Below are positions 1-37,237 of a stretch of 64,000 nucleotides of DNA, in pieces (position 1 is the first letter of the stretch; each line of letters begins with the position of its first letter). The stretch lies in the NCBI GenBank assembly GCA_963669155.1, contig OZ022580.1:18995736-19059735 (forward strand). The letters are read 5' to 3'. The notes beneath the pieces were generated by a model, which searched no databases, was not told the origin of the DNA, and saw nothing but the letters and a program-made list of their open reading frames with translations. The DNA comes from Arbacia lixula (Eukaryota > Echinodermata > Echinoidea > Arbacioida > Arbaciidae). The translations under genes and the position numbers were made by a program.

Positions 1-121
1 GGTAATCACTTACTTGTCTGACAAAGTCTTGAAAATCCATAAAATAATGAAAAACGTTTAGATCCAATTTGTGAACCTAGGAATTATCCTCCTGCTGACA
101 CGTTCAACGAAGAAAAAAAGT

Positions 122-900
122 GTTAAGCAATTTTAAATCTCTTTCTGAGTACGAGGTTGAAAAACTCATTGCCAACCTCAGCAAAAATTCATGACCATTG
201 GACCCATTACACACAAAACTCCTCCTCTAATGTGTCGATGTACTCATTCTTATATTCACATCATTGATCAATCTCTCTCTCTCTCTCTCTCTCGACCGGT
301 CACTTTCCAATGCAATGGGAAAATGCTCTTATCACTCCGTTATTGAAAGAAACCGGTTCTTAATTGATGCAGTCTTTAAGGAAACTTACGACCTGTAAGC
401 AATCTGAAATACATATCAAAGTTGGTGGAGGATGCAGCTATCCAACAGGTTATGGAACATCTTAGACGCAACTCTCCTCGGCCATGTACTCAATGTGGAG
501 ACAATTCTACAGCACTGATCCTGCACTGCTGAAACTGCTTCGCAAGGGTCACGATTGGGTCCCATGTTATTTACAATGCACACTAGCGATCTCATTTCAA
601 ATGTTCAAACATGCTTTCCTGAGATCTCATGTCACTGCTATGATGATGACACACAGCTTTATGTATCTTTCAGTCTCACTGAGCATTCTCAAGAATAAGC
701 AATATTATTAGTAGAAACGTGTATTGACTATGTAAGTACGTGGATGGATGCTAGAGAATAGGCTTATACTAAATGATAGTAAAACTCGTGAAGTTGACGT
801 CCAGTTCTTCTCTTCCGCATTGCCATTTTTGTCCATCTGAGATAGATAAAAGTTAATTCTATACGTTTGGAGACAAATCAAAGCAACCTAGCTGGCATAG
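122..900 (+). pseudogene. Decayed, internally deleted LINE reverse transcriptase inside each monomer
   Basis: Conceptual reading needs several frames. One frame gives EVEKLIANLSKNS, a stop, then PLDP and CVDVL, matching the pre-RT region of CR1/L2-type LINEs. The next gives FPMQWENALITPLLKETG. A further segment reads KLVEDAAIQQVMEHLRRNS, then MWRQFYSTDPALLKLL, equivalent to the usual SAYR-FHSTETALL block. Immediately after, at 540, the frame changes to SQGSRLGPMLFTMHTSDL and continues to the catalytic box at 639-653, which reads Y-D-D-D-T instead of Y-A-D-D-T. The stretch that should hold the first catalytic aspartate (the DLS-AFDT motif) is absent, so a deletion joins the two parts. Stops and frameshifts rule out an active enzyme. 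All 28 copies share these defects, so the LINE was dead before the array expanded. Clade assignment (CR1/L2-like) comes from motif memory only. Confidence 0.82.
272..293 (+). repeat. CT microsatellite inside the monomer
   Basis: An uninterrupted CT run of variable length sits at the same place in every monomer, with visibly longer runs in the copies near 1461-1489, 8585-8613 and 32308-32334. In the LINE reading frame it encodes alternating Leu-Ser, exactly where related RTs carry a short Leu-Ser-Leu-Ser motif before the FP.W block. It probably arose by slippage of those codons. Confidence 0.9.
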
Positions 901-1189
901 CTGCTCAACTTAGCTGTAACGCTTCGTCTGATGACGACTTGCGAATGATTTGCTGCATATATACCGCGACGCGCGCGGGATGCTAAGTAGAGGCGCTTTA
1001 AGGAGACACTTATTGCTAAAATATACCGTGTAAGGGAGACGTACCGGCAAATATATGTATATCTTACTGTGCAGGAGTACGATAAAAAAAGTAGCTGCTC
1101 AGTGTTGTCTAGTCCATGTTGAACATGTCAAATAAGCATCCTTCGATACCATGTACTATTGATAGACATAAATTCGTCAATGTGCCCTA

Positions 1190-1456
1190 GGTAATCACTT
1201 ACTTGTCTGACAAAGTCTTGAAAATCCATAAAATAATAAAAAACGTTTAGATCCAATTTGTGAACCTAGGAATTATCCTCCTGCTGACACGTTCAACGAA
1301 GAAAAAAGTGTTAAGCAATTTTAAATCTCTTTCTGAGTACGAGGTTGAAAAACTCATTGCCAACCTCAGCAAAAATTCATGACCATTGGACCCAATACAC
1401 ACAAAACTCCTCCTCTAATGTGTCAATGTACTCATTCATATATTCACATCATTGAT

Positions 1457-1490
<34 letters not shown>

Positions 1491-4400
1491 ACCGGTCACT
1501 TTCCAATGCAATGGGAAAATGCTCTTATCACTCCGTTATTGAAAGAAACCGGTTCTTAATTGATGCAGTCTTTAAGGAAACTTACGACCTGTAAGCAATC
1601 TGAAATACATATCAAAGTTGGTGGAGGATGCAGCTATCCAACAGGTTATGGAACATCTTAGACGCAACTCTCCTCGGCCATGTACTCAATGTGGAGACAA
1701 TTCTACAGCACTGATCCTGCACTGCTGAAACTGCTTCGCAAGGGTCACGATTGGGTCCCATGTTATTTACAATGCACACTAGCGATCTCATTTCAAATGT
1801 TCAAACATGCTTTCCTGAGATCTCATGTCACTGCTATGATGATGACACACAGCTTTATGTATCTTTCAGTCTCACTGAGTATTCTCAAGAATAAGCCGTA
1901 TTATTAGTAGAAACGTGTATTGACTATGTAACTACGTGGATGGATGCTAGACAATAGGCTTATACTAAATGATAGTAAAACTCGTGAAGTTGACGTCCAG
2001 TTCTTCTCTTCCGCATTGCCATTTTTGTCCATCTGAGATAGATAAAAGTTAATTCTATACGTTTGAAGACAAATCAAAGCAACCTAGCTGGCATAGCTGC
2101 TCAACTTAGCTGTAACGCTTCGTCTGATGACGACTTGCGAATGATTTGCTGCATATATACCGCGACGCGCGCGGGATGCTAAGTAGAGGCGCTTTAAGGA
2201 GACACTTATTGCTAAAATATACCGTGTAAGGGAGACGTACCGGCAAATATATGTATATCTTACTGTGCAGGAGTACGATAAAAAAAGTAGCTGCTCAGTG
2301 TTGTCTAGTCCATGTTGAACATGTCAAATAAGCATCCTTCGATACCATGTACTATTGATAGACATAAATTCGTCAATGTGCCCTAGGTAATCACTTACTT
2401 GTCTGACAAAGTCTTGAAAATCCATAAAATAATGAAAAACGTTTAGATCCAATTTGTGAACCTAGGAATTATCCTCCTGCTGACACGTTCAACGAAGAAA
2501 AAAAGTGTTAAGCAATTTTAAATCTCTTTCTGAGTACGAGGTTGAAAAACTCATTGCCAACCTCAGCAAAAATTCATGACCATTGGACCCAATACACACA
2601 AAACTCCTCCTCTAATGTGTCGATGTACTCATTCTTATATTCACATCATTGATCAATCTCTCTCTCTCTCTCTCTCGACCGGTCACTTTCCAATGCAATG
2701 GGAAAATGCTCTTATCACTCCGTTATTGAAAGAAACCGGTTCTTAATGCAGTCTTTAAGGAAACTTTCGACCTGTAAGCAATCTGAAATAGATATCAAAG
2801 TTGGTGGAGGATGCAGCTATCCAACAGGTTATGGAACATCTTAGACGCAACTCTCCTCGGCCATGTACTCAATGTGGAGACAATTCTACAGCACTGATCC
2901 TGCACTGCTGAAACTGCTTCGCAAGGGTCACGATTGGGTCCCATGTTATTTACAATGCACACTAGCGATCTCATTTCAAATGTTCAAACATGCTTTCCTG
3001 AGAGCTCATGTCACTGCTATGATGATGACACACAGCTTCATGTATCTTTCAGTCTCACTGAGCATTCTCAAGAATAAGCCGTATTATTAGTAGAAACGTG
3101 TATTGACTATGTAAGTACGTGGATGGATGCTAGACAATAGGCTTATACTAAATGATAGTAAAACTCGTGAAGTTGACGTCCAGTTCTTCTCTTCCGCATT
3201 GCCATTTTCGTCCATCTGAGATAGATAAAAGTTAATTCTATACGTTTGGAGACAAATCAAAGCAACCTAGCTGGCATAGCTGCTCAACTTAGCTGTAACG
3301 CTTCGTCTGATGACGACTTGCGAATGATTTGCTGCATATATACCGCGACGCGCGCGGGATGCTAAGTAGAGGCGCTTTAAGGAGACACTTATTGCTAAAA
3401 TATACTGTGTAAGGGAGACGTACCGGCAAATATATGTATATCTTACTGTGCAGGAGTACGATAAAAAAAATAGCTGCTCAGTGTTGTCTAGTCCATGTTG
3501 AACATGTCAAATAAGCATCCTTCGATACCATGTACTATTGATAGACATAAATTCGTCAATATGCCCTAGGTAATCACTTACTTGTCTGACAAAGTCTTGA
3601 AAATCCATAAAATAATGAAAAACGTTTAGATCCAATTTGTGAACCTAGGAATTATCCTCCTGCTGACACGTTCAACGAAGAAAAAAAGTGTTAAGCAATT
3701 TTAAATCTCTTTCTGAGTACGAGGTTGAAAAACTCATTGCCAACCTCAGCAAAAATTCATGACCATTGGACCCATTACACACAAAACTCCTCCTCTAATG
3801 TGTCGATGTACTCATTCTTATATTCACATCATTGATCAATCTCTCTCTCTCTCTCTCTCTCGACCGGTCACTTTCCAATGCAATGGGAAAATGCTCTTAT
3901 CACTCCGTTATTGAAAGAAACCGGTTCTTAATTGATGCAGTCTTTAAGGAAACTTACGACCTGTAAGCAATCTGAAATACATATCAAAGTTGGTGGAGGA
4001 TGCAGCTATCCAACAGGTTATGGAACATCTTAGACGCAACTCTCCTCGGCCATGTACTCAATGTGGAGACAATTCTACAGCACTGATCCTGCACTGCTGA
4101 AACTGCTTCGCAAGGGTCACGATTGGGTCCCATGTTATTTACAATGCACACTAGCGATCTCATTTCAAATGTTCAAACATGCTTTCCTGAGATCTCATGT
4201 CACTGCTATGATGATGACACACAGCTTTATGTATCTTTCAGTCTCACTGAGCATTCTCAAGAATAAGCAATATTATTAGTAGAAACGTGTATTGACTATG
4301 TAAGTACGTGGATGGATGCTAGAGAATAGGCTTATACTAAATGATAGTAAAACTCGTGAAGTTGACGTCCAGTTCTTCTCTTCCGCATTGCCATTTTTGT

Positions 4401-7400
4401 CCATCTGAGATAGATAAAAGTTAATTCTATACGTTTGGAGACAAATCAAAGCAACCTAGCTGGCATAGCTGCTCAACTTAGCTGTAACGCTTCGTCTGAT
4501 GACGACTTGCGAATGATTTGCTGCATATATACCGCGACGCGCGCGGGATGCTAAGTAGAGGCGCTTTAAGGAGACACTTATTGCTAAAATATACCGTGTA
4601 AGGGAGACGTACCGGCAAATATATGTATATCTTACTGTGCAGGAGTACGATAAAAAAAGTAGCTGCTCAGTGTTGTCTAGTCCATGTTGAACATGTCAAA
4701 TAAGCATCCTTCGATACCATGTACTATTGATAGACATAAATTCGTCAATGTGCCCTAGGTAATCACTTACTTGTCTGACAAAGTCTTGAAAATCCATAAA
4801 ATAATAAAAAACGTTTAGATCCAATTTGTGAACCTAGGAATTATCCTCCTGCTGACACGTTCAACGAAGAAAAAAAGTGTTAAGCAATTTTAAATCTCTT
4901 TCTGAGTACGAGGTTGAAAAACACATTGCCAACCTCAGCAAAAATTCATGACCATTGGACCCAATACACACAAAATTCCTCCTCTAATGTGTCGATGTAC
5001 TCATTCTTATATTCACATCATTGATCAATCTCTCTCTCTCTCTCTCTCGACCGGTCACTTTCCAATGCAATGGGAAAATGCTCTTATCACTCCGTTATTG
5101 AAAGAAACCGGTTCTTAATGCAGTCTTTAAGGAAACTTACGACCTGTAAGCAATCTGAAATAGATATCAAAGTTGGTGGAGGATGCAGCTATCCAACAGG
5201 TTATGGAACATCTTAGACGCAACTCTCCTCGGCCATGTACTCAATGTGGAGACAATTCTACAGCACTGATCCTGCACTGCTGAAACTGCTTCGCAAGGGT
5301 CACGATTGGGTCCCATGTTATTTACAATGCACACTAGCGATCTCATTTCAAATGTTCAAACATGCTTTCCTGAGAGCTCATGTCACTGCTATGATGATGA
5401 CACACAGCTTCATGTATCTTTCAGTCTCACTGAGCATTCTCAAGAATAAGCCGTATTATTAGTAGAAACGTGTATTGACTATGTAAGTACGTGGATGGAT
5501 GCTAGACAATAGGCTTATACTAAATGATAGTAAAACTCGTGAAGTTGACGTCCAGTTCTTCTCTTCCGCATTGCCATTTTCGTCCATCTGAGATAGATAA
5601 AAGTTAATTCTATACGTTTGGAGACAAATCAAAGCAACCTAGCTGGCATAGCTGCTCAACTTAGCTGTAACGCTTCGTCTGATGACGACTTGCGAATGAT
5701 TTGCTGCATATATACCGCGACGCGCGCGGGATGCTAAGTAGAGGCGCTTTAAGGAGACACTTATTGCTAAAATATACCGTGTAAGGGAGACGTACCGGCA
5801 AATATATGTATATCTTACTGTGCAGGAGTACGATAAAAAAAAATAGCTGCTCAGTGTTGTCTAGTCCATGTTGAACATGTCAAATAAGCATCCTTCGATA
5901 CCATGTACTATTGATAGACATAAATTCGTCAATATGCCCTAGGTAATCACTTACTTGTCTGACAAAGTCTTGAAAATCCATAAAATAATGAAAAACGTTT
6001 AGATCCAATTTGTGAACCTAGGAATTATCCTCCTGCTGACACGTTCAACGAAGAAAAAAAGTGTTAAGCAATTTTAAATCTCTTTCTGAGTACGAGGTTG
6101 AAAAACTCATTGCCAACCTCAGCAAAAATTCATGACCATTGGACCCATTACACACAAAACTCCTCCTCTAATGTGTCGATGTACTCATTCTTATATTCAC
6201 ATCATTGATCAATCTCTCTCTCTCTCTCTCTCTCGACCGGTCACTTTCCAATGCAATGGGAAAATGCTCTTATCACTCCGTTATTGAAAGAAACCGGTTC
6301 TTAATTGATGCAGTCTTTAAGGAAACTTACGACCTGTAAGCAATCTGAAATACATATCAAAGTTGGTGGAGGATGCAGCTATCCAACAGGTTATGGAACA
6401 TCTTAGACGCAACTCTCCTCGGCCATGTACTCAATGTGGAGACAATTCTACAGCACTGATCCTGCACTGCTGAAACTGCTTCGCAAGGGTCACGATTGGG
6501 TCCCATGTTATTTACAATGCACACTAGCGATCTCATTTCAAATGTTCAAACATGCTTTCCTGAGATCTCATGTCACTGCTATGATGATGACACACAGCTT
6601 TATGTATCTTTCAGTCTCACTGAGCATTCTCAAGAATAAGCCGTATTATTAGTAGAAACGTGTATTGACTATGTAAGTACGTGGATGGATGCTAGAGAAT
6701 AGGCTTATACTAAATGATAGTAAAACTCGTGAAGTTGACGTCCAGTTCTTCTCTTCCGCATTGCCATTTTTGTCCATCTGAGATAGATAAAAGTTAATTC
6801 TATACGTTTGGAGACAAATCAAAGCAACCTAGCTGGCATAGCTGCTCAACTTAGCTGTAACGCTTCGTCTGATGACGACTTGCGAATGATTTGCTGCATA
6901 TATACCGCGACGCGCGCGGGATGCTAAGTAGAGGCGCTTTAAGGAGACACTTATTGCTAAAATATACCGTGTAAGGGAGACGTACCGGCAAATATATGTA
7001 TATCTTACTGTGCAGGAGTACGATAAAAAAAGTAGCTGCTCAGTGTTGTCTAGTCCATGTTGAACATGTCAAATAAGCATCCTTCGATACCATGTACTAT
7101 TGATAGACATAAATTCGTCAATGTGCCCTAGGTAATCACTTACTTGTCTGACAAAGTCTTGAAAATCCATAAAATAATAAAAAACGTTTAGATCCAATTT
7201 GTGAACCTAGGAATTATCCTCCTGCTGACACGTTCAACGAAGAAAAAAAGTGTTAAGCAATTTTAAATCTCTTTCTGAGTACGAGGTTGAAAAACTCATT
7301 GCCAACCTCAGCAAAAATTCATGACCATTGGACCCAATACACACAAAATTCCTCCTCTAATGTGTCGATGTACTCATTCTTATATTCACATCATTGATCA

Positions 7401-8313
7401 ATCTCTCTCTCTCTCTCTCTCGACCGGTCACTTTCCAATGCAATGGGAAAATGCTCTTATCACTCCGTTATTGAAAGAAACCGGTTCTTGATGCAGTCTT
7501 TAAGGAAACTTACGACCTGTAAGCAATCTGAAATAGATATCAAAGTTGGTGGAGGATGCAGCTATCCAACAGGTTATGGAACATCTTAGACGCAACTCTC
7601 CTCGGCCATGTACTCAATGTGGAGACAATTCTACAGCACTGATCCTGCACTGCTGAAACTGCTTCGCAAGGGTCACGATTGGGTCCCATGTTATTTACAA
7701 TGCACACTAGCGATCTCATTTCAAATGTTCAAACATGCTTTCCTGAGAGCTCATGTCACTGCTATGATGATGACACACAGCTTCATGTATCTTTCAGTCT
7801 CACTGAGCATTCTCAAGAATAAGCCGTATTATTAGTAGAAACGTGTATTGACTATTTAACTACGGGGATGGATGCTAGACAATAGGCTTATACTAAATGA
7901 TAGTAAAACTCGTGAAGTTGACGTCCAGTTCTTCTCTTCCGCATTGCCATTTTCGTCCATCTGAGATAGATAAAAGTTAATTCTATACGTTTGGAGACAA
8001 ATCAAAGCAACCTAGCTGGCATAGCTGCTCAACTTAGCTGTAACGCTTCGTCTGATGACGACTTGCGAATGATTTGCTGCATATATACCGCGACGCGCGC
8101 GGGATGCTAAGTAGAGGCGCTTTAAGGAGACACTTATTGCTAAAATATACCGTGTAAGGGAGACGTATCGGCAAATATATGTATATCTTACTGTGCAGGA
8201 GTACGATAAAAAAAATAGCTGCTCAGTGTTGTCTAGTCCATGTTGAACATGTCAAATAAGCATCCTTCGATACCATGTACTATTGATAGACATGAATTCG
8301 TCAATATGCCCTA
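1190..8313 (+). repeat. Higher-order repeat block, six monomers, first copy
   Basis: Six consecutive monomers (starts 1190, 2386, 3569, 4758, 5942, 7131) form a block that recurs with an exact offset of 7124 bp. The first has the long CT run and ATTGATGCAG; the third has CAATATTATTAG where most have CCGTATTATTAG; the second, fourth and sixth carry GAGCTC rather than AGATCT. Each of these diagnostic variants reappears 7124 bp downstream. A few substitutions separate the blocks, for example AATAATAAAAAACG here against AATAATGAAAAACG in the first monomer of the next block. Confidence 0.93.
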
Positions 8314-8580
8314 GGTAATCACTTACTTGTCTGACAAAGTCTTGAAAATCCATAAAATAATGAAAAACGTTTAGATCCAATTTGTGAACCTAGGAATTAT
8401 CCTCCTGCTGACACGTTCAACGAAGAAAAAAGTGTTAAGCAATTTTAAATCTCTTTCTGAGTACGAGGTTGAAAAACTCATTGCCAACCTCAGCAAAAAT
8501 TCATGACCATTGGACCCAATACACACAAAACTCCTCCTCTAATGTGTCAATGTACTCATTCATATATTCACATCATTGAT

Positions 8581-8614
<34 letters not shown>

Positions 8615-11600
8615 ACCGGTCACTTTCCAATGCAATGGGAAAATGCTCTTATCACTCCGTTATTGAAAGAAACCGGTTCTTAATTGATGCAGTCTTTAAG
8701 GAAACTTACGACCTGTAAGCAATCTGAAATACATATCAAAGTTGGTGGAGGATGCAGCTATCCAACAGGTTATGGAACATCTTAGACGCAACTCTCCTCG
8801 GCCATGTACTCAATGTGGAGACAATTCTACAGCACTGATCCTGCACTGCTGAAACTGCTTCGCAAGGGTCACGATTGGGTCCCATGTTATTTACAATGCA
8901 CACTAGCGATCTCATTTCAAATGTTCAAACATGCTTTCCTGAGATCTCATGTCACTGCTATGATGATGACACACAGCTTTATGTATCTTTCAGTCTCACT
9001 GAGTATTCTCAAGAATAAGCCGTATTATTAGTAGAAACGTGTATTGACTATGTAACTACGTGGATGGATGCTAGACAATAGGCTTATACTAAATGATAGT
9101 AAAACTCGTGAAGTTGACGTCCAGTTCTTCTCTTCCGCATTGCCATTTTTGTCCATCTGAGATAGATAAAAGTTAATTCTATACGTTTGAAGACAAATCA
9201 AAGCAACCTAGCTGGCATAGCTGCTCAACTTAGCTGTAACGCTTCGTCTGATGACGACTTGCGAATGATTTGCTGCATATATACCGCGACGCGCGCGGGA
9301 TGCTAAGTAGAGGCGCTTTAAGGAGACACTTATTGCTAAAATATACCGTGTAAGGGAGACGTACCGGCAAATATATGTATATCTTACTGTGCAGGAGTAC
9401 GATAAAAAAAGTAGCTGCTCAGTGTTGTCTAGTCCATGTTGAACATGTCAAATAAGCATCCTTCGATACCATGTACTATTGATAGACATAAATTCGTCAA
9501 TGTGCCCTAGGTAATCACTTACTTGTCTGACAAAGTCTTGAAAATCCATAAAATAATGAAAAACGTTTAGATCCAATTTGTGAACCTAGGAATTATCCTC
9601 CTGCTGACACGTTCAACGAAGAAAAAAAGTGTTAAGCAATTTTAAATCTCTTTCTGAGTACGAGGTTGAAAAACTCATTGCCAACCTCAGCAAAAATTCA
9701 TGACCATTGGACCCAATACACACAAAATTCCTCCTCTAATGTGTCGATGTACTCATTCTTATATTCACATCATTGATCAATCTCTCTCTCTCTCTCTCTC
9801 GACCGGTCACTTTCCAATGCAATGGGAAAATGCTCTTATCACTCCGTTATTGAAAGAAACCGGTTCTTAATGCAGTCTTTAAGGAAACTTACGACCTGTA
9901 AGCAATCTGAAATAGATATCAAAGTTGGTGGAGGATGCAGCTATCCAACAGGTTATGGAACATCTTAGACGCAACTCTCCTCGGCCATGTACTCAATGTG
10001 GAGACAATTCTACAGCACTGATCCTGCACTGCTGAAACTGCTTCGCAAGGGTCACGATTGGGTCCCATGTTATTTACAATGCACACTAGCGATCTCATTT
10101 CAAATGTTCAAACATGCTTTCCTGAGAGCTCATGTCACTGCTATGATGATGACACACAGCTTCATGTATCTTTCAGTCTCACTGAGCATTCTCAAGAATA
10201 AGCCGTATTATTAGTAGAAACGTGTATTGACTATGTAAGTACGTGGATGGATGCTAGACAATAGGCTTATACTAAATGATAGTAAAACTCGTGAAGTTGA
10301 CGTCCAGTTCTTCTCTTCCGCATTGCCATTTTCGTCCATCTGAGATAGATAAAAGTTAATTCTATACGTTTGGAGACAAATCAAAGCAACCTAGCTGGCA
10401 TAGCTGCTCAACTTAGCTGTAACGCTTCGTCTGATGACGACTTGCGAATGATTTGCTGCATATATACCGCGACGCGCGCGGGATGCTAAGTAGAGGCGCT
10501 TTAAGGAGACACTTATTGCTAAAATATACTGTGTAAGGGAGACGTACCGGCAAATATATGTATATCTTACTGTGCAGGAGTACGATAAAAAAAATAGCTG
10601 CTCAGTGTTGTCTAGTCCATGTTGAACATGTCAAATAAGCATCCTTCGATACCATGTACTATTGATAGACATAAATTCGTCAATATGCCCTAGGTAATCA
10701 CTTACTTGTCTGACAAAGTCTTGAAAATCCATAAAATAATGAAAAACGTTTAGATCCAATTTGTGAACCTAGGAATTATCCTCCTGCTGACACGTTCAAC
10801 GAAGAAAAAAAGTGTTAAGCAATTTTAAATCTCTTTCTGAGTACGAGGTTGAAAAACTCATTGCCAACCTCAGCAAAAATTCATGACCATTGGACCCATT
10901 ACACACAAAACTCCTCCTCTAATGTGTCGATGTACTCATTCTTATATTCACATCATTGATCAATCTCTCTCTCTCTCTCTCTCTCGACCGGTCACTTTCC
11001 AATGCAATGGGAAAATGCTCTTATCACTCCGTTATTGAAAGAAACCGGTTCTTAATTGATGCAGTCTTTAAGGAAACTTACGACCTGTAAGCAATCTGAA
11101 ATACATATCAAAGTTGGTGGAGGATGCAGCTATCCAACAGGTTATGGAACATCTTAGACGCAACTCTCCTCGGCCATGTACTCAATGTGGAGACAATTCT
11201 ACAGCACTGATCCTGCACTGCTGAAACTGCTTCGCAAGGGTCACGATTGGGTCCCATGTTATTTACAATGCACACTAGCGATCTCATTTCAAATGTTCAA
11301 ACATGCTTTCCTGAGATCTCATGTCACTGCTATGATGATGACACACAGCTTTATGTATCTTTCAGTCTCACTGAGCATTCTCAAGAATAAGCAATATTAT
11401 TAGTAGAAACGTGTATTGACTATGTAAGTACGTGGATGGATGCTAGAGAATAGGCTTATACTAAATGATAGTAAAACTCGTGAAGTTGACGTCCAGTTCT
11501 TCTCTTCCGCATTGCCATTTTTGTCCATCTGAGATAGATAAAAGTTAATTCTATACGTTTGGAGACAAATCAAAGCAACCTAGCTGGCATAGCTGCTCAA

Positions 11601-14600: not shown

Positions 14601-15438
14601 GAAACCGGTTCTTGATGCAGTCTTTAAGGAAACTTACGACCTGTAAGCAATCTGAAATAGATATCAAAGTTGGTGGAGGATGCAGCTATCCAACAGGTTA
14701 TGGAACATCTTAGACGCAACTCTCCTCGGCCATGTACTCAATGTGGAGACAATTCTACAGCACTGATCCTGCACTGCTGAAACTGCTTCGCAAGGGTCAC
14801 GATTGGGTCCCATGTTATTTACAATGCACACTAGCGATCTCATTTCAAATGTTCAAACATGCTTTCCTGAGAGCTCATGTCACTGCTATGATGATGACAC
14901 ACAGCTTCATGTATCTTTCAGTCTCACTGAGCATTCTCAAGAATAAGCCGTATTATTAGTAGAAACGTGTATTGACTATTTAACTACGTGGATGGATGCT
15001 AGACAATAGGCTTATACTAAATGATAGTAAAACTCGTGAAGTTGACGTCCAGTTCTTCTCTTCCGCATTGCCATTTTTGTCCATCTGAGATAGATAAAAG
15101 TTAATTCTATACGTTTGGAGACAAATCAAAGCAACCTAGCTGGCATAGCTGCTCAACTTAGCTGTAACGCTTCGTCTGATGACGACTTGCGAATGATTTG
15201 CTGCATATATACCGCGACGCGCGCGGGATGCTAAGTAGAGGCGCTTTAAGGAGACACTTATTGCTAAAATATACCGTGTAAGGGAGACGTATCGGCAAAT
15301 ATATGTATATCTTACTGTGCAGGAGTACGATAAAAAAAAATAGCTGCTCAGTGTTGTCTAGTCCATGTTGAACATGTCAAATAAGCATCCTTCGATACCA
15401 TGTACTATTGATAGACATAAATTCGTCAATATGCCCTA
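8314..15438 (+). repeat. Higher-order repeat block, six monomers, second copy
   Basis: Second copy of the six-monomer block (starts 8314, 9510, 10693, 11882, 13066, 14255). Positions of all internal landmarks equal those of the first block plus 7124 until the last monomer, which gained one A in its A-run and differs by a few substitutions (for instance TTTTTGTCC in place of TTTTCGTCC near 15070). This is the expected product of a large unequal exchange or amplification of a whole block. Confidence 0.93.
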
Positions 15439-21630: not shown

Positions 21631-21661
<31 letters not shown>

Positions 21662-23741
21662 GACCGGTCACTTTCCAATGCAATGGGAAAATGCTCTTAT
21701 CACTCCGTTATTGAAAGAAACCGGTTCTTAATTGATGCAGTCTTTAAGGAAACTTACGACCTGTAAGCAATCTGAAATACATATCAAAGTTGGTGGAGGA
21801 TGCAGCTATCCAACAGGTTATGGAACATCTTAGACGCAACTCTCCTCGGCCATGTACTCAATGTGGAGACAATTCTACAGCACTGATCCTGCACTGCTGA
21901 AACTGCTTCGCAAGGGTCACGATTGGGTCCCATGTTATTTACAATGCACACTAGCGATCTCATTTCAAATGTTCAAACATGCTTTCCTGAGATCTCATGT
22001 CACTGCTATGATGATGACACACAGCTTTATGTATCTTTCAGTCTCACTGAGCATTCTCAAGAATAAGCCGTATTATTAGTAGAAACGTGTATTGACTATG
22101 TAACTACGTGGATGGATGCTAGACAATAGGCTTATACTAAATGATAGTAAAACTCGTGAAGTTGACGTCCAGTTCTTCTCTTCCGCATTGCCATTTTTGT
22201 CCATCTGAGATAGATAAAAGTTAATTCTATACGTTTGGAGACAAATCAAAGCAACCTAGCTGGCATAGCTGCTCAACTTAGCTGTAACGCTTCGTCTGAT
22301 GACGACTTGCGAATGATTTGCTGCATATATACCGCGACGCGCGCGGGATGCTAAGTAGAGGCGCTTTAAGGAGACACTTATTGCTAAAATATACCGTGTA
22401 AGGGAGACGTACCGGCAAATATATGTATATCTTACTGTGCAGGAGTACGATAAAAAAAGTAGCTGCTCAGTGTTGTCTAGTCCATGTTGAACATGTCAAA
22501 TAAGCATCCTTCGATACCATGTACTATTGATAGACATAAATTCGTCAATGTGCCCTAGGTAATCACTTACTTGTCTGACAAAGTCTTGAAAATCCATAAA
22601 ATAATAAAAAACGTTTAGATCCAATTTGTGAACCTAGGAATTATCCTCCTGCTGACACGTTCAACGAAGAAAAAAAGTGTTAAGCAATTTTAAATCTCTT
22701 TCTGAGTACGAGGTTGAAAAACTCATTGCCAACCTCAGCAAAAATTCATGACCATTGGACCCAATACACACAAAATTCCTCCTCTAATGTGTCGATGTAC
22801 TCATTCTTATATTCACATCATTGATCAATCTCTCTCTCTCTCTCTCTCGACCGGTCACTTTCCAATGCAATGGGAAAATGCTCTTATCACTCCGTTATTG
22901 AAAGAAACCGGTTCTTGATGCAGTCTTTAAGGAAACTTACGACCTGTAAGCAATCTGAAATAGATATCAAAGTTGGTGGAGGATGCAGCTATCCAACAGG
23001 TTATGGAACATCTTAGACGCAACTCTCCTCGGCCATGTACTCAATGTGGAGACAATTCTACAGCACTGATCCTGCACTGCTGAAACTGCTTCGCAAGGGT
23101 CACGATTGGGTCCCATGTTATTTACAATGCACACTAGCGATCTCATTTCAAATGTTCAAACATGCTTTCCTGAGAGCTCATGTCACTGCTATGATGATGA
23201 CACACAGCTTCATGTATCTTTCAGTCTCACTGAGCATTCTCAAGAATAAGCCGTATTATTAGTAGAAACGTGTATTGACTATGTAAGTACGTGGATGGAT
23301 GCTAGACAATAGGCTTATACTAAATGATAGTAAAACTCGTGAAGTTGACGTCCAGTTCTTCTCTTCCGCATTGCCATTTTCGTTCATCTGAGATAGATAA
23401 AAGTTAATTCTATACGTTTGGAGACAAATCAAAGCAACCTAGCTGGCATAGCTGCTCAACTTAGCTGTAACGCTTCGTCTGATGACGACTTGCGAATGAT
23501 TTGCTGCATATATACCGCGACGCGCGCGGGATGCTAAGTAGAGGCGCTTTAAGGAGACACTTATTGCTAAAATATACCGTGTAAGGGAGACGTATCGGCA
23601 AATATATGTATATCTTACTGTGCAGGAGTACGATAAAAAAAAATAGCTGCTCAGTGTTGTCTAGTCCATGTTGAACATGTCAAATAAGCATCCTTCGATA
23701 CCATGTACTATTGATAGACATAAATTCGTCAATATGCCCTA
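20177..23741 (+). repeat. Three-monomer higher-order repeat, first copy
   Basis: Monomers starting 20177, 21361 and 22558. Diagnostic changes are GGTAGAGG and GTCTAAAGACGAC in the first, CTTATAATATTCAC with a long CT run in the second, and the GAGCTC variant with AGATATC in the third. The same ordered set follows at 23742, 24925 and 26118, so this is a trimer of about 3.56 kb. Confidence 0.88.
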
Positions 23742-26700
23742 GGTAATCACTTACTTGTCTGACAAAGTCTTGAAAATCCATAAAATAATGAAAAACGTTT
23801 AGATCCAATTTGTGAACCTAGGAATTATCCTCCTGCTGACACGTTCAACGAAGAAAAAAAGTGTTAAGCAATTTTAAATCTCTTTCTGAGTACGAGGTTG
23901 AAAAACTCATTGCCAACCTCAGCAAAAATTCATGACCATTGGACCCATTACACACAAAACTCCTCCTCTAATGTGTCGATGTACTCATTCTTATATTCAC
24001 ATCATTGATCAATCTCTCTCTCTCTCTCTCTCGACCGGTCACTTTCCAATGCAATGGGAAAATGCTCTTATCACTCCGTTATTGAAAGAAACCGGTTCTT
24101 GATGCAGTCTTTAAGGAAACTTACGACCTGTAAGCAATCTGAAATACATATCAAAGTTGGTAGAGGATGCAGCTTTCCAACAGGTTATGGAACATCTTAG
24201 ACGCAACTCTCCTCGGCCATGTACTCAATGTGGAGACAATTCTACAGCACTGATCCTGCACTGCTGAAACTGCTTCGCAAGGGTCACGATTGGGTCCCAT
24301 GTTATTTACAATGCACACTAGCGATCTCATTTCAAATGTTCAAACATGCTTTCCTGAGATCTCATGTCACTGCTATGATGATGACACACAGCTTTATGTA
24401 TCTTTCAGTCTCACTGAGCATTCTCAAGAATAAGCCGTATTATTAGTAGAAACGTGTATTGACTATGTAAGTACGTGGATGGATGCTAGACAATAGGCTT
24501 ATACTAAATGATAGTAAAACTCGTGAAGTTGACGTCCAGTTCTTCTCTTCCGCATTGCCATTTTCGTCCATCTGAGATAGATAAAAGTTAATTCTATACG
24601 TTTGGAGACAAATCAAAGCAACCTAGCTGGCATAGCTGCTCAACTTAGCTGTAACGCTTCGTCTAAAGACGACTTGCGAATGATTTGCTGCATATATACC
24701 GCGACGCGCGCGGGATGCTAAGTAGAGGCGCTTTAAGGAGACACTTATTGCTAAAATATACCGTGTAAGGGAGACGTATCGGCAAATATATGTATATCTT
24801 ACTGTGCAGGAGTACGATAAAAAAAATAGCTGCTCAGTGTTGTCTAGTCCATGTTGAACATGTCAAATAAGCATCCTTCGATACCATGTACTATTGATAG
24901 ACATGAATTCGTCAATATGCCCTAGGTAATCACTTACTTGTCTGACAAAGTCTTGAAAATCCATAAAATAATGAAAAACGTTTAGATCCAATTTGTGAAC
25001 CTAGGAATTATCCTCCTGCTGACACGTTCAACGAAGAAAAAAGTGTTAAGCAATTTTAAATCTCTTTCTGAGTACGAGGTTGAAAAACTCATTGCCAACC
25101 TCAGCAAAAATTCATGACCATTGGACCCAATACACACAAAACTCCTCCTCTAATGTGTCGATGTACTCATTCTTATAATATTCACATCATTGATCAATCT
25201 CTCTCTCTCTCTCTCTCTCTCGACCGGTCACTTTCCAATGCAATGGGAAAATGCTCTTATCACTCCGTTATTGAAAGAAACCGGTTCTTAATTGATGCAG
25301 TCTTTAAGGAAACTTACGACCTGTAAGCAATCTGAAATACATATCAAAGTTGGTGGAGGATGCAGCTATCCAACAGGTTATGGAACATCTTAGACGCAAC
25401 TCTCCTCGGCCATGTACTCAATGTGGAGACAATTCTACAGCACTGATCCTGCACTGCTGAAACTGCTTCGCAAGGGTCACGATTGGGTCCCATGTTATTT
25501 ACAATGCACACTAGCGATCTCATTTCAAATGTTCAAACATGCTTTCCTGAGATCTCATGTCACTGCTATGATGATGACACACAGCTTTATGTATCTTTCA
25601 GTCTCACTGAGCATTCTCAAGAATAAGCCGTATTATTAGTAGAAACGTGTATTGACTATGTAACTACGTGGATGGATGCTAGACAATAGGCTTATACTAA
25701 ATGATAGTAAAACTCGTGAAGTTGACGTCCAGTTCTTCTCTTCCGCATTGCCATTTTTGTCCATCTGAGATAGATAAAAGTTAATTCTATACGTTTGGAG
25801 ACAAATCAAAGCAACCTAGCTGGCATAGCTGCTCAACTTAGCTGTAACGCTTCGTCTGATGACGACTTGCGAATGATTTGCTGCATATATACCGCGACGC
25901 GCGCGGGATGCTAAGTAGAGGCGCTTTAAGGAGACACTTATTGCTAAAATATACCGTGTAAGGGAGACGTACCGGCAAATATATGTATATCTTACTGTGC
26001 AGGAGTACGATAAAAAAAGTAGCTGCTCAGTGTTGTCTAGTCCATGTTGAACATGTCAAATAAGCATCCTTCGATACCATGTACTATTGATAGACATAAA
26101 TTCGTCAATGTGCCCTAGGTAATCACTTACTTGTCTGACAAAGTCTTGAAAATCCATAAAATAATAAAAAACGTTTAGATCCAATTTGTGAACCTAGGAA
26201 TTATCCTCCTGCTGACACGTTCAACGAAGAAAAAAAGTGTTAAGCAATTTTAAATCTCTTTCTGAGTACGAGGTTGAAAAACTCATTGCCAACCTCAGCA
26301 AAAATTCATGACCATTGGACCCAATACACACAAAATTCCTCCTCTAATGTGTCGATGTACTCATTCTTATATTCACATCATTGATCAATCTCTCTCTCTC
26401 TCTCTCTCGACCGGTCACTTTCCAATGCAATGGGAAAATGCTCTTATCACTCCGTTATTGAAAGAAACCGGTTCTTGATGCAGTCTTTAAGGAAACTTAC
26501 GACCTGTAAGCAATCTGAAATAGATATCAAAGTTGGTGGAGGATGCAGCTATCCAACAGGTTATGGAACATCTTAGACGCAACTCTCCTCGGCCATGTAC
26601 TCAATGTGGAGACAATTCTACAGCACTGATCCTGCACTGCTGAAACTGCTTCGCAAGGGTCACGATTGGGTCCCATGTTATTTACAATGCACACTAGCGA

Positions 26701-27299
26701 TCTCATTTCAAATGTTCAAACATGCTTTCCTGAGAGCTCATGTCACTGCTATGATGATGACACACAGCTTCATGTATCTTTCAGTCTCACTGAGCATTCT
26801 CAAGAATAAGCCGTATTATTAGTAGAAACGTGTATTGACTACTTAACTACGTGGATGGATGCTAGACAATAGGCTTATACTAAATGATAGTAAAACTCGT
26901 GAAGTTGACGTCCAGTTCTTCTCTTCCGCATTGCCATTTTCGTTCATCTGAGATAGATAAAAGTTAATTCTATACGTTTGGAGACAAATCAAAGCAACCT
27001 AGCTGGCATAGCTGCTCAACTTAGCTGTAACGCTTCGTCTGATGACGACTTGCGAATGATTTGCTGCATATATACCGCGACGCGCGCGGGATGCTAAGTA
27101 GAGGCGCTTTAAGGAGACACCATGCTAAAATATACCGTGTAAGGGAGACGTATCGGCAAATATATGTATATCTTACTGTGCAGGAGTACGATAAAAAAAA
27201 ATAGCTGCTCAGTGTTGTCTAGTCCATGTTGAACATGTCAAATAAGCATCCTTCGATACCATGTACTATTGATAGACATAAATTCGTCAATATGCCCTA
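23742..27299 (+). repeat. Three-monomer higher-order repeat, second copy
   Basis: Copy of the preceding trimer with the same diagnostic variants in the same order. The third monomer (26118) differs by CTACTTAAC near 26838 and by a short deletion that turns GACACTTATTGC into GACACCATGC near 27117, so it has drifted slightly since duplication. Confidence 0.88.
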
Positions 27300-30200
27300 G
27301 GTAATCACTTACTTGTCTGACAAAGTCTTGAAAATCCATAAAATAATGAAAAACGTTTAGATCCAATTTGTGAACCTAGGAATTATCCTCCTGCTGACAC
27401 GTTCAACGAAGAAAAAAAGTGTTAAGCAATTTTAAATCTCTTTCTGAGTACGAGGTTGAAAAACTCATTGCCAACCTCAGCAAAAATTCATGACCATTGG
27501 ACCCATTACACACAAAACTCCTCCTCTAATGTGTCGATGTACTCATTCTTATATTCACATCATTGATCAATCTCTCTCTCTCTCTCTCTCTCGACCGGTC
27601 ACTTTCTAATGCAATGGGAAAATGCTCTTATCACTCCGTTATTGAAAGAAACCGGTTCTTGATGCAGTCTTTAAGGAAACTTACGACCTGTAAGCAATCT
27701 GAAATACATATCAAAGTTGGTGGAGGATGCATCTATCCAACAGGTTATGGAACATCTTAGACGCAACTCTCCTCGGCCATGTACTCAATGTGGAGACAAT
27801 TCTACAGCACTGATCCTGCATTGCTGAAACTGTTTCGCAAGGGTCACGATTGGGTCCCATGTTATTTACAATGCACACTAGCGATCTCATTTCAAATGTT
27901 CAAACATGCTTTCCTGAGATCTCATGTCACTGCTATGATGATGACACACAGCTTTATGTATCTTTCAGTCTCACTGAGCATTCTCAAGAATAAGCCGTAT
28001 TATTAGTAGAAACGTGTATTGACTATGTAACTACGTGGATGGATGCTAGAGAATAGGCTTATACTAAATGATAGTAAAAGTCGTGAAGTTGACGTCCAGT
28101 TCTTCTCTTCCGCATTGCCATTTTCGTTCATCTGAGATAGATCAAAGTTAATTCTATACGTTTGGAGACAAATCAAAGCAACCTAGCTGGCATAGCTGCT
28201 CAACTTAGCTGTAACGCTTCGTCTGATGACGACTTGCGAATGATTTGCTGCATATATACCGCGACGCGCGCGTGATGCTAGGTAGAGGCGCTTTAAGGAG
28301 ACACTTATTGCTAAAATATACCGTGTAAGGGAGACGTATCGGCAAATATATGTATATCTTACTGTGCAGGAGTACGATAAAAAAAAAATAGCTGCTCAGT
28401 GTTGTCTAGTCCATGTTGAACATGTCAAATAAGCATCCTTCGATACCATGTACTATTGATAGACATGAATTCGTCAATATGCCCTAGGTAATCACTTACT
28501 TGTCTGACAAAGTCTTGAAAATCCATAAAATAATGAAAAACGTTTAGATCCAATTTGTGAACCTAGGAATTATCCTCCTGCTGACACGTTCAACGAAGAA
28601 AAAAAGTGTTAAGCAATTTTAAATCTCTTTCTGAGTACGAGGTTGAAAAACTCATTGCCAACCTCAGCAAAAATTCATGACCATTGGACCCAATACACAC
28701 AAAACTCCTCCTCTAATGTGTCGATGTACTCATTCTTATATTCACATCATTGATCAATCTCTCTCTCTCTCTCTCTCGACCGGTCACTTTCCAATGCAAT
28801 GGGAAAATGCTCTTATCACTCCGTTATTGAAAGAAACCGGTTCTTGATGCAGTCTTTAAGGAAACTTACGACCTGTAAGCAATCTGAAATACATATCAAA
28901 GTTGGTGGAGGATGCAGCTGTCCAACAGGTTATGGAACATCTTAGACGCAACTCTCCTCGGCCATGTACTCAATGTGGAGACAATTCTACAGCACTGATC
29001 CTGCACTGCTGAAACTGCTTCGCAAGGGTCACGATTGGGTCCCATGTTATTTACAATGCACACTAGCGATCTCATTTCAAATGTTCAAACATGCTTTCCT
29101 GAGAGCTCATGTCACTGCTATGATGATGACACACAGCTTTATGTATCTGTCAGTCTCACTGAGCATTCTCAAGAATAAGCCGTATTATTAGTAGAAACGT
29201 GTATTGACTATTTAACTACGTGGATGGATGCTAGACAATAGGCTTATACTAAATGATAGTAAAACTCGTGAAGTTGACGTCCAGTTCTTCTCTTCCGCAT
29301 TGCCATTTTTGTCCATCTGAGATAGATAAAAGTTAATTCTATACGTTTGGAGACAAATCAAAGCAACCTAGCTGGCATAGCTGCTCAACTTAGCTGTAAC
29401 CCTTCGTCTGATGACGACTTGCGAATGATTTGCTGCATATATACCGCGACGCGCGCGGGATGCTAAGTAGAGGCGCTTTAAGGAGACACTTATTGCTAAA
29501 ATATACCGTGTAAGGGAGACGTACCGGCAAATATATGTATATCTTACTGTGCAGGAGTACGATAAAAAAAATAGCTGCTCAGTGTTGTCTAGTCCATGTT
29601 GAACATGTCAAATAAGCATCCTTCGATACCATGTACTATTGATAGACATAAATTCGTCAATATGCCCTAGGTAATCACTTACTTGTCTGACAAAGTCTTG
29701 AAAATCCATAAAATAATGAAAAACGTTTAGATCCAATTTGTGAACCTAGGAATTATCCTCCTGCTGACACGTTCAACGAAGAAAAAAAGTGTTAAGCAAT
29801 TTTAAATCTCTTTCTGAGTACGAGGTTGAAAAACTCATTGCCAACCTCAGCAAAAATTCATGACCATTGGACCCATTACACACAAAACTCCTCCTCTAAT
29901 GTGTCGATGTACTCATTCTTATATTCACATCATTGATCAATCTCTCTCTCTCTCTCTCTCGACCGGTCACTTTCCAATGCAATGGAAAAATGCTCTTATC
30001 ACTCCGTTATTGAAAGAAACCGGTTCTTGATGCAGTCTTTAAGGAAACTTACGACCTGTAAGCAATCTGAAATACATATCAAAGTTGGTGGAGGATGCAG
30101 CTATCCAACAGGTTATGGAACATCTTAGACGCAACTCTCCTCGGCCATGTACTCAATGTGGAGACAATTCTACAGCACTGATCCTGCACTGCTGAAACTG

Positions 30201-32304
30201 CTTCGCAAGGGTCACGATTGGGTCCCATGTTATTTACAATGCACACTAGCGATCTCATTTCAAATGTTCAAACATGCTTTCCTGAGATCTCATGTCACTG
30301 CTATGATGATGACACACAGCTTTATGTATCTTTCAGTCTCACTGAGCATTCTCAAGAATAAGCCGTATTATTAGTAGAAACGTGTATTGACTATTTAACT
30401 ACGTGGATGGATGCTAGACAATAGGCTTATACTAAATGATAGTAAAACTCGTGAAGTTGACGTCCAGTTCTTCTCTTCCGCATTGCCATTTTTGTCCATC
30501 TGAGATAGATAAAAGTTAATTCTATACGTTTGGAGACAAATCAAAGCAACCTAGCTGGCATAGCTGCTCAACTTAGCTGTAACGCTTCGTCTGATGACGA
30601 CTTGCGAATGATTTGCTGCATATATACCGCGACGCGCGCGGGATGCTAAGTAGAGGCGCTTTAAGGAGACACTTATTGCTAAAATATACCGTGTAAGGGA
30701 GACGTACCGGCAAATATATGTATATCTTACTGTGCAGGAGTACGATAAAAAAAATAGCTGCTCAGTGTTGTCTAGTCCATGTTGAACATGTCAAATAAGC
30801 ATCCTTCGATACCATGTACTATTGATAGACATAAATTCGTCAATATGCCCTAGGTAATCACTTACTTGTCTGACAAAGTCTTGAAAATCCATAAAATAAT
30901 GAAAAACGTTTAGATCCAATTTGTGAACCTAGGAATTATAATCCTGCTGACACGTTCAACGAAGAAAAAAGTGTTAAGCAATTTTAAATCTCTTTCTGAG
31001 TACGAGGTTGAAAAACTCATTGCCAACCTCAGCAAAAATTCATGACCATTGGACCCATTACACACAAAACTCCTCCTCTAATGTGTCGATGTACTCATTC
31101 TTATATTCACATCATTGATCAATCTCTCTCTCTCTCTCTCTCGACCGGTCACTTTCCAATGCAATGGGAAAATGCTCTTATCACTCCGTTATTGAAAGAA
31201 ACCGGTTCTTGATGCAGTCTTTAAGGAAACTTACGACCTGTAAGCAATCTGAAATACATATCAAAGTTGGTGGAGGATGCAGCTATCCAACAGGTTATGG
31301 AACATCTTAGACGCAACTCTCCTCGGCCATGTACTCAATGTGGAGACAATTCTACAGCACTGATCCTGCACTGCTGAAACTGCTTCGCAAGGGTCACGAT
31401 TGGGTCCCATGTTATTTACAATGCACACTAGCGATCTCATTTCAAATGTTTAAACATGCTTTCCTGAGATCTCATGTCACTGCTATGATGATGACACACA
31501 GCTTTATGTATCTTTCAGTCTCACTGAGCATTCTCAAGAATAAGCCGTATTATTAGTAGAAACGTGTATTGACTATGTAAGTACGTGGATGGATGCTAGA
31601 GAATAGGCTTATACTAAATGATAGTAAAACTCGTGAAGTTGACGTCCAGTTCTTCTCTTCCGCATTGCCATTTTCGTCCATCTGAGATAGATAAAAGTTA
31701 ATTCTATACGTTTGGAGACAAATCAAAGCAACCTAGCTGGCATAGCTGCTCAACTTAGCTGTAACGCTTCGTCTGATGACGACTTGCGAATGATTTGCTG
31801 CATATATACCGCGACGCGCGCGGGATGCTAAGTAGAGGCGCTTTAAGGAGACACTTATTGCTAAAATATACCGTGTAAGGGAGACGTATCGGCAAATATA
31901 TGTATATCTTACTGTGCAGGAGTACGATAAAAAAAATAGCTGCTCAGTGTTGTCTAGTCCATGTTGAACATGTCAAATAAGCATCCTTCGATACCATGTA
32001 CTATTGATAGACATGAATTCGTCAATATGCCCTAGGTAATCACTTACTTGTCTGACAAAGTCTTGAAAATCCATAAAATAATGAAAAACGTTTAGATCCA
32101 ATTTGTGAACCTAGGAATTATCCTCCTGCTGACACGTTCAACGAAGAAAAAAGTGTTAAGCAATTTTAAATCTCTTTCTGAGTACGAGGTTGAAAAACTC
32201 ATTGCCAACCTCAGCAAAAATTCATGACCATTGGACCCAATACACACAAAACTCCTCCTCTAATGTGTCGATGTACTCATTCTTATAATATTCACATCAT
32301 TGAT

Positions 32305-32335
<31 letters not shown>

Positions 32336-33077
32336 GACCGGTCACTTTCCAATGCAATGGGAAAATGCTCTTATCACTCCGTTATTGAAAGAAACCGGTT
32401 CTTGATGCAGTCTTTAAGGAAACTTACGACCTGTAAGCAATTTGAAATACATATCAAAGTTGGTGGAGGATGCAGCTATCCAACAGGTTATGGAACATCT
32501 TAGACGCAACTCTCCTCGGCCATGTACTCAATGTGGAGACAATTCTACAGCACTGATCCTGCACTGCTGAAACTGCTTCGCAAGGGTCACGATTGGGTCC
32601 CATGTTATTTACAATGCACACTAGCGATCTCATTTCAAATGTTCAAACATGCTTTCCTGAGAGCTCATGTCACTGCTATGATGATGACACACAGCTTTAT
32701 GTATCTTTCAGTCTCACTGAGCATTCTCAAGAATAAGCCGTATTATTAGTAGAAACGTGTATTGACTATGTAACTACGTGGATGGATGCTAGACAATAGG
32801 CTTATACTAAATGATAGTAAAACTCGTAAAGTTGACGTCCAGTTCTTCTCTTCCGCATTGCCATTTTCGTCCATCTGAGATAGATAAAAGTTAATTCTAT
32901 ACGTTTGGAGACAAATCAAAGCAACCTAGCTGGCATAGCTGCTCAACTTAGCTGTAACGCTTCGTCTGATGACGACTTGCGAATGATTTGCTGCATAAAT
33001 ACCGCGACGCGCGCGGGATGCTAAGTAGAGGCGCTTTAAGGAGACACTTATTGCTAAAATATACCGCGCAAGGGAGA
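27300..33077 (+). repeat. Right-hand end of array, monomers U24-U28
   Basis: Monomers at 27300, 28487, 29670, 30853 and 32035. The first two repeat the U14-U15 pair, including CTGTTTCGC and GCATCTATCC. The last copy shows array-edge divergence (CTGCATAAATACC instead of CTGCATATATACC, ATACCGCGCAAGG instead of ATACCGTGTAAGG) and is truncated after GGGAGAC at 33077. Confidence 0.9.
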
Positions 33078-33105
33078 CCTCTACTCAGCATCCCGCGCGC
33101 GTCGC
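33004..33105. repeat. Inverted repeat at the array terminus
   Basis: The last monomer contains a 28-bp segment (33004-33031) beginning GCGACGCGCGCGGG. Its reverse complement follows at 33078-33105 with one mismatch, after a 46-bp spacer. The inverted arm begins exactly where the satellite stops matching its consensus. Beyond 33105 the match ends. The pair could form a GC-rich cruciform or hairpin and marks the breakpoint. Confidence 0.9.
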
Positions 33106-37227: not shown

Positions 37228-37237
37228 TGCTGCCATT

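What the first reader, a model, noticed from the sequence alone, without database searches (positions are those of the whole stretch)
1..33077. Satellite born from a dead LINE fused to an independent non-coding repeat
Each monomer of about 1.18 kb carries the same internally deleted RT (first catalytic Asp motif gone, YADD changed to YDDD, shared frameshifts) joined to a CpG-rich non-coding segment that exists separately at 56822. The monomer therefore formed once, by joining two repeats, and was amplified to at least 28 head-to-tail copies. I do not know of a described satellite with this composition.
Basis: partly seen in the sequence, partly recalled or inferred. Interest (0 to 1): 0.75.

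Follow-up and report, generated by a model that had tools for sequence, protein, structure and literature searches.

The report
Giant transposon carrying its own satellite
The long run of repeats is not a free-standing satellite: it is the inner part of a very large transposon-like element (complete copies span 40 to 93 thousand bases) found at more than two dozen places in this genome, next to a TATATA run at every end examined.

Summary
The array is real: w1-33078, 1,183-bp monomer, 27 complete and 2 partial copies, continuing at least 20 kb upstream. One same-family LINE copy lacks the CpG segment for 1.1 kb downstream, so the monomer is a fusion.

Two points fail. The CpG-rich copy at 56822 is not independent: all 40 scored places (of 561 candidates) lie in one repeat family, 30 near its right end, 10 in its arrays. 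And the array is not free-standing. It sits inside a dispersed element from C5:18964299 to w57510, 88.9 kb, with inverted ends, clustered GGAGACA motifs and (TA)n outside. The end motif occurs 54 times in 607 Mb (control 0); 26 of the 54 form 13 correctly oriented pairs of 40-93 kb, none wrong; 28 are unpaired. No transposase domain was found in the stretches scanned.

Best reading: a giant non-autonomous DNA transposon with an internal satellite built from a resident dead LINE and its own subterminal DNA. Transposase, superfamily, TSD and host are unknown.

The parts
1..33078 (+). internal tandem array, 1,183-bp monomer (27 complete + 2 partial in the window; continues at least 20 kb upstream of the window)
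4655..5183 (+). reference monomer w4001-5183: LINE ORF2 linker / RT N-terminal part (monomer 655-1183; continues into 1-98 of the next unit)
   Evidence: 655-934 is 84% to the LINE in the left arm; 957-1183 plus 1-98 is 82% to LINE copy L097
4099..4110 (+). deletion junction: 244 bp of RT, with the first catalytic Asp motif, missing (between monomer 98 and 111)
   Evidence: junction at 28 sites
4111..4352 (+). LINE RT C-terminal part with YDDD in place of YADD (monomer 111-352)
   Evidence: (90% to L097)
4490..4651 (+). CpG-rich segment with two GGAGAC motifs, paralogue of the element's right subterminal region (BLAST-supported part w4538-4651; the rest by eye)
33078..33105 (-). array/right-arm junction: 28-bp inverted copy of monomer 534-561; same junction in the other copies fetched
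33079..57510 (+). right arm of the giant element (18.2 kb without the nested insert)
   Evidence: repeated at 95-99% identity
36540..37982 (+). LINE 3' part inside the right arm (RVT_1); also at five other places at 91-92%
40369..46599 (.). nested insert in the window copy: inverted ends GGCCCCGTAACATAAA, likely TSD CAG; the C7, C4:1.94M and C3 copies lack it
49129..51467 (+). second dead LINE in the right arm (three ORFs with RVT_1 matches, one below the cut-off)
51999..52966 (+). 1-kb inverted repeat, arm 1 (84% to w55377-56358)
55377..56358 (-). 1-kb inverted repeat, arm 2
56822..57039 (+). CpG-rich right subterminal segment, paralogue of the monomer's CpG segment
57400..57510 (+). right terminus with GGAGACA/TGTCTCC motifs and inverted end TGGATCCCGCATTAGGGAGACAT (read on - strand)
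57510..57560 (.). (AT)n tract at the insertion site, right side

Best explanation
The array is the internal, length-variable part of a giant non-autonomous class II (cut-and-paste-type) DNA transposon. SHOWN: two inverted, non-identical ends; a left arm of about 10.4 kb (measured in the C14 copy), a tandem array, a right arm of about 18.2 kb; (TA)n outside every end read; dispersed copies, 13 of them with both ends, 40-93 kb; no transposase domain in the stretches scanned. INFERRED: a transposase supplied in trans binds the GGAGACA motifs near the ends and inserts the element into TA microsatellites. A CR1/L2-like LINE once landed in the element, lost 244 bp of RT, and came to lie next to a second copy of the element's CpG-rich subterminal DNA. 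That piece was duplicated head to tail, and the array then grew, shrank and was homogenised by unequal exchange inside each insertion. Later transpositions spread the array to other chromosomes.
For: Right arm w33080-38000: 28 stretches at 27 places, window included, others 95-99% (33 of 545 candidates scored). Left arm: 22 places, 17 of them the same loci as a right arm (40 of 3,724 scored). End pattern with up to 2 mismatches: 54 sites in 607 Mb, control 0; 25 left-type and 29 right-type, 13 properly oriented pairs of 40,415-93,200 bp, 0 improper pairs within 150 kb. (TA)n directly outside 20 of 20 left ends and 25 of 25 right ends read, of 25 and 29 known. Outside flanks (about 200 bp each) mostly unrelated among 43 compared. 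Terminal 115 bp: 25 of 29 matches identical, the window's own included, mean 99.6%, against mean 93.6% to the window in 29 matches further in. GGAGAC: 6 in the first 290 bp of the left arm, 7 in the last 553 bp of the right arm; shuffled arms give 2.9 and 4.1 in their whole lengths. LINE linker of the left arm at 97-100% at 23 places. Homogenisation: within C10 0.40%, C10 to other elements 3.2-3.5%; identical monomers inside C5 (67 complete monomers of five copies, other unit types dropped).
Against: 28 of 54 ends have no partner within 150 kb: 11 on short contigs, 17 on large ones; one of these, C14:13.78M, runs into an assembly gap, the others were not examined. Five left-arm loci lack a right arm and ten right-arm loci lack a left-arm match; six of 29 right ends lack the array-side right arm. 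No transposase domain found. The inverted ends share about 23 bp and differ at the tips. TSD cannot be read inside (TA)n; no empty site was shown. Arrays could have expanded after insertion, so movement of a 40-93 kb unit is not shown. Terminal conservation is weaker by direct count: 3 differences in 480 terminal sites of four copies against 78 in 5,548 further in, and C7 has 2 of its 7 differences at the end. It may in part reflect gene conversion or shared ancestry.
Confidence: 0.8

Rival explanations
1. Segmental duplication or ectopic recombination spread large blocks that contain the array; the ends are only frequent breakpoints.
For: The element is huge with no transposase found; 28 of 54 ends are unpaired; three flanks share a repeat that itself lies next to (TA)n, and one other pair shares 90 bp.
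Against: Same base-precise inverted ends at each end read, 13 proper and 0 improper pairs; flanks mostly unrelated; ends more conserved than the DNA further in (weaker).
Confidence: 0.09
2. A Helentron-type (HINE-like) rolling-circle element with central tandem repeats, as in oyster Cg_HINE.
For: Same layout: left module, central satellite-like array, right module with subterminal inverted motifs and a hairpin about 70 bp inside the right end (AAGGAGACA-CAAAAA-TGTCTCCTT); (TA)n hides any TSD.
Against: Insertion is in TA runs, not TT; inverted outer ends; no Rep/helicase domain in the stretches scanned; arrays of tens of kb, whereas the Cg_HINE passages read speak of short arrays.
Confidence: 0.07
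3. Ordinary free-standing LINE-derived satellite, with the flanking resemblance secondary.
For: Array is long, homogeneous and of LINE content; the C14:13.79M array has no right arm, but it ends in an assembly gap; only 11 of 186 candidates were scored in the monomer search, so armless arrays are not excluded.
Against: Both arms accompany arrays at 17 loci; same array/right-arm junction at the ten places fetched, the window's own included; all 40 scored places of the CpG segment lie in this family.
Confidence: 0.04

Closest known systems
Tetris / TIR-220 (Drosophila virilis foldback transposon; PMC4079207, passages read)
   Same: Non-autonomous DNA transposon whose internal tandem repeats, probably derived from its own terminal DNA, grew into satellite arrays; the transposase was not found there either
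   Different: Tetris repeats are ~220 bp and lie within its TIRs; here a 1.18-kb unit, about 72% dead LINE, lies between two unlike arms with very short inverted ends, in 40-93 kb units
Galileo (foldback, Drosophila buzzatii; as described in the PMC4079207 passages)
   Same: Internal tandem repeats that carry extra transposase-binding sites; the monomer here carries two copies of the end motif
   Different: Binding is untested here; no transposase found
Cg_HINE, Helentron-borne satellite-like repeats of oyster (PMC7492417, passages read)
   Same: Left module, central satellite-like array, right module; dispersed; subterminal inverted repeats
   Different: TT/T-rich insertion, microsatellite in the left flank sequence, short arrays; here TA runs outside both ends and arrays of tens of kb
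MuTAnT, Mutator-like elements that target TA microsatellites (Medicago; PMC4486113, passages read)
   Same: Insertion in (TA)n, which mostly hides TSDs
   Different: Plant elements, no satellite interior in the passages read; no sequence tie tested
Known giant eukaryotic transposons (review PMC6431247, passages read)
   Same: Size class
   Different: Those in the passages read are coding (Polintons, Terminons, giant LTR elements); here no transposase was found and much of the size is satellite

Membership tests
Non-autonomous class II DNA transposon | defined inverted ends shared by copies | tested here: met
   54 ends, 13 proper pairs, 0 improper, 28 unpaired; the repeat is short and imperfect
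Non-autonomous class II DNA transposon | dispersed copies in unrelated flanks | tested here: met
   (43 flanks; 3-4 share a repeat, one pair shares 90 bp, one pair 44 bp)
Non-autonomous class II DNA transposon | target site duplication or empty site | tested here: inconclusive
   every site read lies in (TA)n; no second haplotype
Non-autonomous class II DNA transposon | related autonomous element with the same ends | tested here: inconclusive
   one relative end at C4:13.60M (89% over ~185 bp, then unrelated); its first 4 kb give only DUF3915 hits below cut-off
Helitron/Helentron (HINE) | TT (or A-T) insertion, no TSD | tested here: not met
   TA runs at all 45 ends read, where HINEs favour TT; insertion between A and T, as in Helitrons (recalled), cannot be told apart inside (TA)n
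Helitron/Helentron (HINE) | 3' palindrome / hairpin | tested here: inconclusive
   a hairpin about 70 bp inside the right end, but also a 14-bp palindrome GGAGACATGTCTCC near the left end
Polinton/Maverick | PolB, integrase and other genes | tested here: not met
   Pfam over the stretches scanned finds only LINE RT and a sub-cut-off endonuclease; w36471-47199 and 49132-51467 only through ORFs
Mutator-like (MuTAnT-like) | mudrA/MULE transposase | not tested
   PF10551 genome search did not complete
Satellite DNA | long head-to-tail homogenised array | tested here: met
Satellite DNA | exists as free-standing (peri)centromeric or subtelomeric blocks | tested here: inconclusive
   12 complete copies on large contigs lie at 0.12-0.95 of contig length, but centromeres are not placed and only 11 of 186 monomer candidates were scored

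The most novel reading that the evidence does not exclude
A new kind of mobile satellite: a transposon family in which the satellite is a working part. Repeating a unit that carries the end-type GGAGACA motif may load dozens of extra transposase-docking sites into the element and help a 40-93 kb unit to synapse and move, so array growth and transposition would feed each other; the mobilising transposase may belong to an undescribed (TA)n-targeting family.
Probability: 0.2. Interest if true: 0.85.

Novelty: new variant of a known kind. Interest (0 to 1): 0.62.

Why it matters
How satellites jump between chromosomes is an old question. Here one assembly holds 13 complete carriers with the same ends and different total lengths, which allows array growth, homogenisation and transposition to be dated against each other. 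It also shows a DNA-transposon-like element of up to 93 kb with no transposase domain found so far, and offers a simple source for dispersed arrays and for assembly gaps.

Tried and rejected
Rejected: LINE 3' half natively containing the CpG segment (L097 has none for about 1.1 kb downstream; one copy tested). Rejected: CpG segment as an independent repeat, as far as the 40 scored places show. Not decided: superfamily; the end sequences match no family I can recall with confidence. Led nowhere: Pfam scans for a transposase; an empty site for the C18 insertion from the repeat shared with the C4:4.2M flank (by eye the left flank does not match it). One search assembled minus-strand loci in the wrong orientation; replaced. 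Literature: nine searches (two returned nothing) listed no paper that I recognised as describing this element; the library lacks most subscription papers and all bioRxiv preprints. Host not identified: C22 is 18 Mb and C25 0.4 Mb, so 22-24 large contigs in 607 Mb; a sea star would fit, but that is recall and untested.
Full report
What is in the window. The first 33,078 bases are a head-to-tail array of a 1,183-bp unit: 27 complete and 2 partial copies, 97-100% identical to the query copy. The array was already running where the window starts; the 20 kb fetched upstream is all array. In C5:18975736-19028814 there are 44 complete units, with identical units at offsets of 2, 3, 6 and 9 and near-identical ones at 10, the mark of recent local duplication.

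The monomer. Against a copy of the same LINE family elsewhere in the genome (L097, C7:19.127 Mb, which keeps LVMDLSSAFDTIDH and YADD but has at least one stop), the monomer aligns at positions 957-1183 plus 1-98 (82%) and 111-352 (90%); the 244 bp between, with the first catalytic Asp motif, are missing. The YDDD core is at 28 sites and the YADD core at none. Monomer 655-934 matches, at 84%, the LINE that still lies in the element's left arm behind an endonuclease-like ORF (PF03372, E=0.0018, below its cut-off). The leftmost unit of the C14 array still joins a piece of RT with the first Asp motif to the array, and the C4 copy is 98% identical there. Aligned LINE pieces add up to 847 of 1,183 bp, about 72%. 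The CpG-rich segment is not part of the LINE: no match in L097. The CR1/L2-like label rests on recalled motifs.

The CpG segment is not independent. Its relative at w56822-57039 was searched in the whole genome: of 561 candidates 40 were scored; 30 are right-end regions of one repeat family (29 at loci with a known right end, one at the edge of contig C26), 7 are monomers in arrays I read, and 3 lie on the array side of the C4:1.94M copy, not read. The other 521 candidates were not scored.

The array has arms. The 4.9 kb after the array (w33080-38000) recurs as 28 stretches at 27 places, the window's own included, the others at 95-99% (33 of 545 candidates scored). The homology runs on to w57510, with a 6.2-kb insert (w40369-46599) that the C7, C4:1.94M and C3 copies lack. 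The junction array/right arm is the same at the ten places fetched, one of them the window's own (40 of 905 candidates scored). In a sub-family (L046) the junction itself is part of a repeated 2.67-kb unit. A left arm, about 10.4 kb in the C14 copy, precedes the array at C14 and C4. A query from it finds 22 places; 17 are right-arm loci, including the window's own copy at C5:18971314; 5 have no right arm (C14:13.79M, C22:3.47M and three short contigs), and 10 right-arm places have no left-arm match (40 of 3,724 candidates scored). The left arm's LINE linker is found at 97-100% at 23 places.

The ends. The right end, read inward, is (AT)n-TGCATGGATCCCGCATTAGGGAGACAT; the left end is (AT)n-CCACTGGATCCAGCGTTAGGGAGACAT. 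The shared pattern, with up to two mismatches, occurs 54 times in 607 Mb and the reversed control 0 times: 25 left-type ends (one, C4:13.60M, of a related element) and 29 right-type. They form 13 pairs in the right order and orientation, 40,415-93,200 bp long (mean 64.8 kb, 843 kb in all), and no improper pair within 150 kb. Against this, 28 ends are unpaired: 11 on short contigs and 17 on large ones; one of them, C14:13.78M, runs into a gap of N after its array, the rest I did not examine. Six of the 29 right ends (C16, C11:20.17M, C119, C177, C353, C371) have no match to w33080-38000. The window copy is C5:18964299-19053241, 88.9 kb. I read 20 of 25 left ends and 25 of 29 right ends; all 45 have a (TA)n tract outside. 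Among 43 outside flanks of about 200 bp (one left flank dropped because it reads N), apart from simple repeats, the window right flank, the C5:20.82M right flank and the C26 left flank (C9:5.68M in part) share one repeat that itself lies against (TA)n; the C18 and C4:4.2M right flanks share 90 bp; C19:13.6M left and C4:24.4M right share 44 bp at 82%. The rest are unrelated, as expected for insertions.

Signs of function at the ends. GGAGAC, either strand, occurs 6 times in the first 290 bp of the left arm and 7 times in the last 553 bp of the right arm; base-shuffled arms give about 2.9 and 4.1 in the whole 10.4 and 18.2 kb. The last 115 bp are identical to the window's in 25 of 29 matches, its own included, mean 99.6%, while w56822-57039 averages 93.6% over 29 other matches. 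In a direct count on four copies the contrast is weaker: 3 differences in 480 terminal sites against 16 in 1,600 and 62 in 3,948 further in; three copies give 1 in 360, and C7, the closest to the window, has 2 of its 7 differences at the end. Each monomer carries two of these motifs in the CpG segment (monomer 570 and 603; a further two GGAGAC lie elsewhere in it), homologous to the pair at w56958 and w56991.

No enzyme. Pfam scans with X at stops covered, in six frames, w33079-36470, 47200-49131 and 51468-57511 and, of the C14 left arm, L055:3523-8873 and L053; the rest of the arms was seen only through ten long ORFs or not at all. They found LINE reverse transcriptase and the endonuclease-like ORF, no transposase. 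One related end at C4:13.60M is 89% alike over 185 bp and then unrelated; its first 4 kb hold no transposase domain. Four requests for a MULE search did not complete.

How it most likely works. Shown: an element with fixed ends, two arms and a length-variable tandem core, spread over many chromosomes, with (TA)n at every end read. Inferred: a transposase in trans uses the GGAGACA clusters; the LINE entered an ancestor; a LINE/subterminal piece was duplicated in tandem; arrays turn over within each insertion. Of 67 complete monomers compared (C5 44, C7 8, C14 6, C3 2, C10 7; truncated and extended units dropped), those of C10 differ by 0.40% among themselves and by 3.2-3.5% from other elements. 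C5-C7 differences (0.91%) equal those within C5 (0.92%), while C7 is tighter within (0.53%). So array spread with the element looks recent for C5 and C7, and local homogenisation has had time in C10. Whether 40-93 kb moved as one piece, or arrays grew after landing, is not settled.

Compared with the known. Tetris in D. virilis is the nearest in logic: a non-autonomous transposon whose own repeated DNA became a satellite, with unknown transposase; its authors note that Galileo's internal repeats hold extra transposase-binding sites (PMC4079207, passages). Oyster Cg_HINE elements share the arm-array-arm layout but favour TT (PMC7492417, passages). MuTAnT elements insert in TA microsatellites (PMC4486113, passages). 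The review of giant transposons describes coding elements in the passages I saw (PMC6431247). What seems new is the combination: very large, no transposase found, inverted ends in (TA)n, and a satellite made of a dead LINE fused to the element's own subterminal DNA. I therefore call it a new variant of a known kind.

Noticed in passing
window 40369-46599: A 6.2-kb nested element, absent from the three copies compared, with inverted ends GGCCCCGTAACATAAA, repeats of CGTAACATAAAG and TACGATCGAT near its ends and a likely 3-bp TSD CAG; Harbinger-like by recalled TSD/TIR style.
   Followed up: partly
window 61544-62395 (-): ORF of 283 aa with zinc-knuckle, gag-like look outside the element; only listed.
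   Followed up: no
window 57562-57763: Short repeat with (TA)n on both sides, also beside the C26 and C5:20.82M insertions and in part C9:5.68M; perhaps a MITE that shares the (TA)n target.
   Followed up: partly
window 51999-52966 and 55377-56358: 1-kb inverted repeat, 84% identical, present in other copies of the element; no coding match.
   Followed up: no
L096 (C4:13601050-13605050): A related left end, 89% over about 185 bp, in (TA)n, with an unrelated body: candidate lead to the autonomous partner.
   Followed up: partly
L046 (C4:24379000-24387000): Sub-family array with a 2.67-kb unit that includes the first ~370 bp of the right arm, so the array border itself was amplified.
   Followed up: partly
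C3 and C4:4.2M copies (L014, L016, L017, L019-L026, L028): Arrays there mix a 696-bp truncated unit with extended units of about 1,976 bp (often a higher-order unit of about 2.67 kb).
   Followed up: partly
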